Below are positions 29,371 through 30,408 of a DNA stretch of 64,000 nt, piece after piece. The translations under genes were made by a program, and so were the position numbers. This stretch comes from Burkholderia sp. BCC0322 (GTDB lineage: Bacteria > Pseudomonadota > Gammaproteobacteria > Burkholderiales > Burkholderiaceae), in NCBI RefSeq assembly GCF_902833045.1, contig NZ_CADFDU010000002.1:434001-498000 (forward strand), given 5' to 3'. The notes beneath the pieces were generated by a model that saw only the letters and a program-made list of their open reading frames with translations, was not told where the DNA came from and did no database searches. The stretch's first letter is position 1. Each line of letters starts with the position of its first letter.

Positions 29371-30408
29371 ATGGAACGCATGCATTCCGATCATTTTCAG
29401 ATGCAGCACCTCGTATATGAGCATACGCATCGCTATCAGCTGCTTTCGCGCATTGCTTCCGGGCATGTCGTCGATTGCGCATGCGGAATCGGTTACGCAT
29501 CTGAAATTATGGCGGCTGCCGGGGTTCAGTCGTATCACGGTTTCGATATCGACGAGCAGTCGGTTCAACAGGCGGTCGAGCGTTTCGCGACGGACGGACG
29601 TCAGTTCACGGTCGGATCGATTCTGTCGCTGCCGCTTGCGGATGCGTCAGTCGATACTTTCTTGTCGCTGGAAACGCTTGAACATTTGCAGGAGCCACAG
29701 CAGGCGATTCGCGAAGTCGCTCGTGTGCTGAAGGCGGACGGAATTTTTGCCGGCTCGGTGCCGACGCGTTCTTACGATGAACGTTGTCACGAGGTTTACG
29801 GCCCCAACCCGTATCACGTAACGCGATTCGACGCAGATGAGATCGTTCAACTGCTGCATACCGGGTTCGAGCACGTATGGCTTGGTGTCGTCAGCCTCGA
29901 CGTGGTGTCGATCGTCCGACCTGTACCGGGTGCCAATGCGAGCGCAGGTTCAGCCGAATGGGTCGGCAACAGCAAGTGGGACGCAACAAAATATGGTTCG
30001 TTCGTCTTCGTCGCGTCACGCAAACCTGTCGATGCGCTGATCCGCAAGCTGCTTCCACAGCAGTGCGCGGTACTGCATGGGATGCCTACTGTTGAAGTGG
30101 ATGCAGAGCAGACTATGCCGCTCTACAAGACGATCTCAGAAATTGAGGCGCTTGTGCAGGATCGCGATGCCGCGTTGGGCCGGTCGGAGGGCATGATCCG
30201 GGATCGCGACGCGGCGATTCGCCGGATGGAGGAAATGATCAGAGATCGCGACGCGGCGATTCGCAGCAATGAGCAGATGATCAATGATCGTGACGCATTG
30301 ATCGCGCAACTCGAACGAATGGTATCGGACCGGGATGCGGCGATCGCATCGAACGAGAAGTTGATCAATGAGCGCGATGCGTTGCTGCGAGCAACACGCA
30401 CGGACTGA
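29371..30408 (+). CDS. SAM methyltransferase with C-terminal 14-residue-repeat coiled coil (WbdD-like)
   Basis: A 345-residue protein. Residues about 1-215 form a class I methyltransferase: motif I VVDCACGIGYASE (33-45), acidic D59 and SLETLEHLQEP. There is no kinase domain. The last 90 residues (256-345) are about six 14-residue units of the type MIRDRDAAIRRMEE, a clean two-heptad coiled coil. In E. coli O8/O9a, WbdD caps the polymer by methylation (O9a also by phosphorylation) and its coiled coil acts as a ruler setting chain length. Position directly after a long-form Wzt supports a chain-terminating role. Inference, moderately strong. Confidence 0.8.
   Translation: MERMHSDHFQMQHLVYEHTHRYQLLSRIASGHVVDCACGIGYASEIMAAAGVQSYHGFDIDEQSVQQAVERFATDGRQFTVGSILSLPLADASVDTFLSLETLEHLQEPQQAIREVARVLKADGIFAGSVPTRSYDERCHEVYGPNPYHVTRFDADEIVQLLHTGFEHVWLGVVSLDVVSIVRPVPGANASAGSAEWVGNSKWDATKYGSFVFVASRKPVDALIRKLLPQQCAVLHGMPTVEVDAEQTMPLYKTISEIEALVQDRDAALGRSEGMIRDRDAAIRRMEEMIRDRDAAIRSNEQMINDRDALIAQLERMVSDRDAAIASNEKLINERDALLRATRTD

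What the first reader, a model, noticed from the sequence alone, without database searches (positions are those of the whole stretch)
29371..30408. Candidate chain-length ruler: methyltransferase fused to a 14-residue-repeat coiled coil
Directly after a long-form Wzt (with carbohydrate-binding domain) lies a methyltransferase whose last 90 residues are about six near-identical 14-residue coiled-coil units. In E. coli O8/O9a, WbdD caps the chain and its coiled-coil length sets polymer length. Here there is no kinase domain and the coil is a clean DNA-level repeat, so O-chain length might evolve by simple repeat gain or loss.
Basis: partly seen in the sequence, partly recalled or inferred. Interest (0 to 1): 0.7.

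Follow-up and report, generated by a model that had tools for sequence, protein, structure and literature searches.

The report
Repeat-coil methyltransferase, likely O-chain ruler
A Burkholderia gene next to a sugar-chain exporter joins a methyl-capping enzyme to a long repeat-built rod that probably sets how long the surface sugar chains grow, and in a plasmid-borne relative the number of rod repeats differs between almost identical DNA copies, which makes the ruler idea testable in nature.

Summary
The ORF is real (29371-30408, 345 aa): a SAM methyltransferase plus a ~99-residue helix with five 14-residue units and a partial sixth, directly after wzm-wzt. No kinase. But the units average 57% identity and their DNA is no more alike than the protein implies, so 'near-identical' and 'clean DNA-level repeat' fail. 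The gene sits in a cassette seen in other bacteria: wzm-wzt-MTase/coil-ORF489-GT4-ORF701. ORF701 matches a solved ribofuranosyltransferase, ORF489 its second half. By order and names the cluster matches that of B. cenocepacia IST439, which makes a ribofuranose/GalNAc O-antigen and whose methyltransferase was already suggested to terminate chains. Kinase-free methyltransferase-coil terminators are known (E. coli O8, O101). New: in seven P. aeruginosa megaplasmids the homologous gene has 4, 6, 7 or 9 identical 84-bp coil units amid ~10 kb differing by 0-1 base, whereas the 107 full-length O8/O9a wbdD rows seen keep one length each; in three relatives the coil is fused to ORF489, naming a likely partner where this protein lacks the usual basic tail; some coil units are better conserved than their methyltransferases. 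Terminator function is likely; the ruler is inferred.

The parts
29371..30408 (+). MTcc: methyltransferase-coil protein, 345 aa, putative O-chain terminator
   Evidence: relatives in the same slot
29470..29751 (+). SAM methyltransferase domain core (aa 34-127)
   Evidence: Pfam PF08241 E 1.7e-20
30103..30399 (+). single long helix, aa 245-343
   Evidence: AlphaFold2 model m294151aaaef1
30157..30366 (+). five full 14-residue coil units (42-bp period); a partial sixth follows up to the stop
   Evidence: TRF
27282..28103 (+). wzm, ABC-2 permease of the polysaccharide exporter
   Evidence: PF01061 E 1.8e-26
28096..29367 (+). wzt, ATPase with C-terminal carbohydrate-binding domain
   Evidence: PF00005 and PF14524
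30694..32799 (-). ORF701: predicted PRPP-dependent ribofuranosyltransferase (HAD phosphatase + phosphoribosyltransferase)
   Evidence: phmmer to 7shg 'Ribofuranosyl transferase' E 2.4e-32 over aa 6-552; weak NCBIfam HAD hits below cut-off
32796..34016 (-). GT406: GT4-type glycosyltransferase, used as tracer for the cassette
   Evidence: PF00534; 67.6% identical to the P. aeruginosa plasmid homologue
34013..35482 (-). ORF489: homologue of the second (transferase) half of 7shg, without HAD domain; fused to the coil of MTcc-type proteins in three relatives
   Evidence: profile A2 to 7shg residues 265-647 E 5.5e-122; fusions
36028..36912 (+). GT2 glycosyltransferase (wbiF position in the published cluster)
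   Evidence: PF00535
23721..27172 (+). rmlBACD-like dTDP-rhamnose genes (four genes, names assigned by reading the ORFs)
   Evidence: ORF list; same order in PMC5462993

Best explanation
MTcc is the chain terminator of a polymerase-terminator O-antigen system. The cytoplasmic polymer, probably a beta-ribofuranose/GalNAc disaccharide repeat, is built by GT406 and the ribofuranosyltransferase ORF701 (with ORF489). The MTase domain, held ~15 nm from the other end of a coiled-coil rod, methylates the non-reducing end once the chain is long enough to reach it; Wzt's carbohydrate-binding domain recognises the cap and the chain is exported. The base of the rod is tied to the polymerase not by a tail of its own but most likely through ORF489. 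Shown: domain content, helix prediction, locus, homology, fusions in relatives. Inferred: polymer, cap chemistry, oligomeric state, ORF489 contact, ruler function.
For: Slot directly after a wzt with carbohydrate-binding domain, the slot of wbdD beside wzt in E. coli O9a and O8. In 10 of 20 loci found with the GT406 alignment an MTase-coil ORF is the next listed ORF after wzt. ORF701 and ORF489 match ribofuranosyltransferase 7shg; the cluster that looks the same by order and gene names in B. cenocepacia IST439 goes with [->2)-b-D-Ribf-(1->4)-a-D-GalpNAc-(1->] (PMC5462993, abstract and sections 18-20; sequences not compared). Coil fused to the ORF489 domain in L070, L071, L072, comparable to K. 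pneumoniae O7, where polymerase modules follow the coil (PMC11231755, passages). AlphaFold helix 245-343. Many MTase residues invariant in the window protein and four relatives.
Against: No C-terminal basic tail: net charge of the last 35 aa is -1 here and -2 in L085, against +6 to +10 in the other 14 of 16 cassette rows (11 distinct genes, the four plasmid alleles counted once; in three of them the tail is that of the fused ORF489 domain). No WbdD-like tail in the three frames after the stop. The MTase is not specifically related to WbdD (27.8% over 108 aa to O8, E 3.5e-5; best O9a match E 9.6). No terminal methyl is mentioned in the passages of PMC5462993 that I searched. ORF489-GT406-ORF701 lie on the opposite strand here, so co-expression with MTcc is not assured.
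Confidence: 0.6

Rival explanations
1. Docking array: each coil unit is a binding site for a polymerase component, and unit number sets enzyme stoichiometry (hence chain length or yield) rather than a distance.
For: In some relatives the unit sequence is conserved while its number varies: best 28-residue match L089 vs L061 is 23/28 (reversed control 8/28) although their MTase parts are 35% identical over 158 aa, with 2 of 8 fourfold sites shared, which points to constraint rather than recent transfer.
Against: Choosing the best match inflates identity; fourfold sites are few and two of nine cross-type pairs share 5-6 of 8; a regular coil also constrains sequence; the window's own coil matches the seven other repeat coils at only 11-13 of 28 (controls 7-10), and L069, L073 and L074 in the same cassette have coils unlike this unit.
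Confidence: 0.2
2. Ordinary O-methyltransferase (side or internal modification) whose coil only makes it oligomeric.
For: The MTase matches only generic MTases in the PDB; no terminal methyl has been shown.
Against: Slot beside a wzt with carbohydrate-binding domain, a coil longer than oligomerisation should need, and fusion of such coils to a transferase-type domain in three relatives.
Confidence: 0.12
3. Fission product: an MTase-coil-ORF489 fusion was cut by an inversion and the remaining MTcc no longer measures anything.
For: Bare coil end; inverted ORF489-GT406-ORF701 block; the closest GT406 relative found (Caballeronia, 75%) has a coil-ORF489 fusion, and its block aligns with the inverted window block, 68.5% over 4475 bp.
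Against: The window's cassette genes are open and of similar length to the plasmid homologues where these exist; L085 also ends bare without inversion; a coil remnant at the ORF489 N-terminus is not significant (38-508 of 2000 shuffles over seven comparisons).
Confidence: 0.08

Closest known systems
E. coli O8 / K. pneumoniae O5 WbdD
   Same: MTase + coil, no kinase, gene directly beside wzt, 425 aa (PMC3482155 passage)
   Different: WbdD goes on after the coil with a region shared with O9a (aa 273-385, 33.6% over 113 aa); MTcc stops at the coil. MTase only generically related. O8 coil has no detectable repeat (235 of 1000 shuffles; no TRF row). Polymannose versus predicted ribofuranose/GalNAc polymer.
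E. coli O9a WbdD (coiled-coil molecular ruler)
   Same: Coil joins the capping domain to the membrane and polymerase end; coil-length changes shift modal chain length (PMC5082667, passage)
   Different: Has a kinase domain and a membrane region; ~20 nm rod (same passage) versus ~15 nm predicted here; coil at most marginally repetitive (42 of 1000; one 15-bp x 2.2 TRF row in the gene).
K. pneumoniae O4 and O7 terminators (PMC11231755)
   Same: ABC-exported, ribofuranose-containing chains with a coiled-coil terminator; in O7 an MTase-coil protein continues into polymerase modules (passages)
   Different: O7 has an extra kinase domain, a CBM and GT modules; O4 uses a Kdo cap. MTcc has none of these. 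Sequences not compared.
B. cenocepacia IST439 / B. multivorans bmul_2514 (PMC5462993)
   Same: Matching gene order and names (wbiF, bmul_2508, 2509, 2510, 2514, wzt, wzm, rmlDCAB) and GC drop (56.1% there; 55-58% at 27-36 kb here); termination role already suggested
   Different: The coil, its repeats, a ruler and the ribofuranosyltransferase assignment of 2508/2510 are not in the sections and passages I read; its sequence was not found in a collection I could search.
E. coli O101 MT (PMC13168486)
   Same: One N-terminal MTase domain and C-terminal coil; loss removes O-methylation and changes chain-length distribution; its authors propose a ruler (passages)
   Different: Different polymer; sequence not compared here.

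Membership tests
Coiled-coil chain terminators of ABC-dependent O-antigens (class described in PMC11231755) | Gene in an ABC-transporter (wzm/wzt) O-antigen locus | tested here: met
[quoted passage not shown]
   PF14524 E 1.3e-15
Coiled-coil chain terminators of ABC-dependent O-antigens (class described in PMC11231755) | Cap-adding enzyme domain at the distal end of an extended coiled coil | tested here: met
   by sequence and model only: MTase aa 34-127, helix 245-343, 14-residue period; oligomeric state and activity not tested
Coiled-coil chain terminators of ABC-dependent O-antigens (class described in PMC11231755) | Non-reducing-end cap stops elongation and licenses export | not testable with these tools
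   needs chemistry and genetics
WbdD (E. coli O8/O9a) proper | C-terminal membrane-associating and polymerase-recruiting region after the coil | tested here: not met
   protein ends at the coil; tail charge -1; no tail in three downstream frames. Not filed as a WbdD.
WbdD (E. coli O8/O9a) proper | MTase domain specifically homologous to WbdD | tested here: inconclusive
   27.8% over 108 aa to O8, E 3.5e-5; O9a best E 9.6
Coil as molecular ruler | Changing coil length shifts modal chain length | not testable with these tools
   natural length alleles found in a homologue; no LPS data
Tandem DNA repeat able to gain or lose units | Units alike at DNA level beyond what the protein dictates | tested here: not met
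   window 0.600 vs 0.591 expected, z 1.5. In relatives: P. aeruginosa plasmids z 8.9 and 13.4, L089 7.6, L075 5.4, L072 4.2, L071 3.0, L070 2.5, L085 2.1
gPRT-PRP ribofuranosyltransferase (ORF701) | Homology to 7shg across HAD phosphatase and transferase halves | tested here: met
   E 2.4e-32 over aa 6-552; domain layout of the family from PMC11127046 passages; activity not tested

The most novel reading that the evidence does not exclude
A class of O-antigen terminators carries a length-variable, sequence-conserved repeat coil that works as an adjustable ruler (or docking array): unit number changes by recombination or slippage far faster than point mutation, so lineages retune O-chain length in whole-unit steps (~4.2 nm per 28-residue unit) without changing the sugar. 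The plasmid-borne P. aeruginosa cassette shows the process in action; the window's gene is an older, frozen member whose coil end pairs with a separate ribofuranosyltransferase-type protein.
Probability: 0.3. Interest if true: 0.8.

Novelty: new variant of a known kind. Interest (0 to 1): 0.56.

Why it matters
In the papers I could see, the ruler model rests on coil changes made in E. coli O9a and on K. pneumoniae O12 (PMC11231755 and PMC5082667, passages). The seven plasmids form a natural near-isogenic series (4, 6, 7, 9 units; 0-1 mismatch in the compared ~10 kb), so the prediction 'more units, longer chains' can be checked in strains that already exist. The fusion in three relatives names a specific partner for the coil's base, and the conserved unit asks whether the rod is only a spacer. 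O-chain length affects many surface traits, so a repeat-number switch would be a general way to vary it.

Tried and rejected
Rejected: (1) absence of a kinase as a novelty (O8 WbdD, O101 MT). (2) A frameshifted tail or a downstream remainder of a bigger protein: three-frame translation of 30300-30700 shows no SWRxT-type tail, and tblastn of five relatives finds no remnant in 30350-30750 or in 35400-36300 above ORF489 beyond one 17-residue match of E 0.31; this test is blind to short coil pieces, for it also missed the last 59 bp of the window's own coil gene. (3) A coil remnant at the ORF489 N-terminus: suggestive by eye, not significant (38 to 508 of 2000 shuffles in seven comparisons).

Led nowhere: the first genome-contig scan with MTcc (0 relatives); profile A3 in 398 genomes of the phylum (0 at E <= 1e-40, no positive control, uninformative); GT406 in phages (no match). 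The genus search with the whole protein (60 of 65 genomes at E <= 0.001) gave MTase-only or coil-only matches; the family and class searches used aa 1-255 only (24 of 349 at E <= 1e-16; 6 of 369 at E <= 1e-18) and matched MTase parts, in open frames of 293 to 1820 aa. None covered MTase and coil together. GT406 in the family: 3 of 398, one being the Caballeronia locus, two without a wzt or MTcc hit in the fetched 19.5 kb. No other allele of the window's own gene was available, so its repeat number could not be compared within a species. Fold search and a second structure job (the Nitrosomonas fusion) never ran.

Literature: searches (open-access PMC only; judged by listed titles and abstract starts; searches list only 20 of 357, 15 of 39 and 15 of 87) showed no paper on repeat-number variation in an O-antigen terminator coil nor on this plasmid cassette. 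The 2015 ruler paper is not held and is known to me only through PMC5082667 and PMC11231755.

Full report
Observation. The ORF at 29371-30408 is open, 345 aa, 3 bp after wzt. It has one Pfam domain type, a SAM methyltransferase (aa 34-127), and no kinase. Its last ~95 residues have a strong 14-residue period (38 lag-14 matches; at most 20 at any lag 5-30 in 5000 shuffles), and AlphaFold2 models residues 245-343 as one helix (5-sequence alignment, mean pLDDT 75.9; blocks covering 271-340 at 80-92), about 14.7 nm long. This is an old protein repeat, not a fresh DNA repeat.

Locus. Order: rml genes, wzm, wzt (with Wzt_C), MTcc; then on the other strand ORF701, GT406, ORF489; then a GT2 gene, an epimerase and WecA/WbpM-like genes (rml and the last names are my reading of the ORFs). 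ORF701 matches the solved ribofuranosyl transferase 7shg (E 2.4e-32), and the ORF489 family profile matches residues 265-647 of the same chain (E 5.5e-122). Such enzymes join a HAD-type phosphatase to a PRPP-using transferase (PMC11127046, passages); ORF489 has only the second part. By order and gene names the cluster matches that of B. [quoted passage not shown]). The GC drop they report also occurs here: 55-58% at 27-36 kb against 59-70% in the flanking 1-kb blocks.

Relatives. GT406 was used as a tracer. An alignment of three GT406 proteins found 20 loci in genome contigs. In 10 of the 20 (L070, L071, L072, L073, L074, L075, L076, L079, L085, L089) an MTase-coil ORF is the next listed ORF after wzt (in L075 with a 758-bp gap); in the other ten the contig ends early or the arrangement differs. 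Six of the ten (L070, L071, L072, L075, L085, L089) have a repeat coil of 14- or 28-residue period. The other four (L073, L074, L076, L079), like Rhizobium L069, have an extra glycosyltransferase gene beside the MTase-coil gene; of these, L073 and L074 (and L069) have coils unlike the unit, L076 shows no repeat, and L079 has its own 70-residue repeat (0.67 identical, 0 of 1000 shuffles). The best relatives of the window MTase part are L071, L072, L085 and L089 (36-37% in the alignment; HSPs 36-39% over ~250 aa).

Fusions. In Nitrosomonas sp. Nm34 and N. communis Nm44 (L071, L072) MTcc and ORF489 are one 773-aa protein; in Caballeronia fortuita (L070) an MTase-coil of another type is fused to ORF489 (its start is uncertain). 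This is the best clue to what sits at the base of the coil. It fits K. pneumoniae O7, where the coil protein continues into polymerase modules, while in O9a WbdD recruits the polymerase through a region proximal to the membrane (PMC11231755 passages). The window protein and L085 end bare: net charge of the last 35 residues -1 and -2, against +6 to +10 in the other 14 of 16 cassette rows (11 distinct genes, plasmid alleles counted once; in three fused proteins the tail belongs to ORF489). The measure is crude: O8 and O9a WbdD score 0 and -2 although they carry a shared region after the coil further in. The ORF489-GT406-ORF701 block of the window aligns inverted to the Caballeronia block (68.5% over 4475 bp), so an inversion has separated what is co-directional in most relatives seen.

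Repeat-number variation. tblastn of MTcc in plasmids found P. aeruginosa megaplasmids with a syntenic cassette (ORF489, GT406 and ORF701 homologues 44%, 68% and 42% identical). All seven records that carry it in that collection were fetched. Their MTase-coil gene, which has two MTase domains, has 4 (three records), 6 (one), 7 (two) or 9 (one) units of 28 aa / 84 bp; all copies in an array are identical in DNA except the last, which diverges at its end (TRF 3.8 and 8.8 copies at 100% match). The 5245 bp upstream of the array is identical in all 21 pairs, and the 4.6-5.5 kb downstream differs by 0 or 1 base (one record has an IS insertion there). Controls: in E. coli, O8 wbdD is found in 303 genomes; 59 of the 60 listed rows are full length and all 59 span exactly 1278 bp, down to 98.3% identity. 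For O9a wbdD, 48 of the 60 listed rows (of 263 records) are full length, all 2127 bp, down to 89.9% identity; the other 12 are fragments of its 3' end. Their coils are not tandem repeats: best lag reached by 235 (O8) and 42 (O9a, marginal) of 1000 shuffles; no TRF row in O8, one 15-bp x 2.2 row in O9a. Nitrosomonas Nm34 and Nm44, whose units are somewhat diverged (z 3.0 and 4.2), have equal length at 91.9% DNA identity. So, on few cases, variation goes with DNA-identical units, and the window gene is expected to be stable. Caveats: the seven plasmids are few and related, array length is a known assembly hazard, and any 84-bp change is in frame automatically, so neutrality is not excluded.

Conserved unit. 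Between some members with different MTase parts the coil unit is strikingly alike: L089 vs L061 23/28 (reversed control 8/28) although the MTases are 35% identical over 158 aa; the other eight cross-type pairs among L089, L071, L072 and L070, L075, L061 give 18-21 of 28 with MTases at 30-35%. Fourfold sites shared are 2-3 of 7-9 in seven of the nine pairs, which argues for constraint rather than recent exchange, but 5-6 of 8 in the two Nitrosomonas-Caballeronia pairs. The window's own coil is a weaker member: 11-13 of 28 with the seven others (controls 7-10). Choosing the best match inflates all these values. A coil conserved in sequence but variable in length is the reverse of a plain spacer and raises the docking-array rival.

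Mechanism. Most likely: a methyl-capping terminator held at the far end of a rod whose base is tied to the polymerase, with Wzt reading the cap. My odds: terminator about 0.7, distance ruler about 0.5, both inferred from anatomy and from WbdD, where coil changes shift modal length (PMC5082667, passage). Class membership is met, by sequence, at the level of coiled-coil terminators; WbdD membership is not, because the tested tail is missing.

Verdict. A new variant of a known kind.

Noticed in passing
window 2792-8974 (+): 2060-aa trimeric-autotransporter-like protein (by reading: long S/T-rich stalk repeats, YadA-like head and anchor) with a very large tandem array; TRF periods 54, 129, 258, 387 bp within 3400-7309.
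   Followed up: no
L095, L096, L097, L098 (Burkholderia genomes G056, G002, G008, G058): Proteins of 424-608 aa with arrays of a HERDGLV-type heptad, 14 to 26 matching heptads by genome; no wzm/wzt hit in the fetched stretches. Another repeat-built coil of differing length; in G058 a stop lies inside the array.
   Followed up: partly
L061, L063-L068: P. aeruginosa megaplasmids carry this ABC-type ribofuranose cassette; a holin-family gene is annotated nearby in six of the seven stretches and a phage tail gene in L063, with IS5-type transposases; in L063 an extra IS5-type copy lies at the 3' end of the MTase-coil gene.
   Followed up: partly
L082, L083, L084, L085, L093, L094: ORF489 homologues of 673-728 aa with an N-terminal extension (HAD-like by reading in the aligned L082-L085); the window's ORF489 lacks it, so it may rely on ORF701's phosphatase or be a structural partner.
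   Followed up: no
window 30408-36028: ORF489-GT406-ORF701 run opposite to wzm-wzt-MTcc, unlike most relatives seen.
   Followed up: partly
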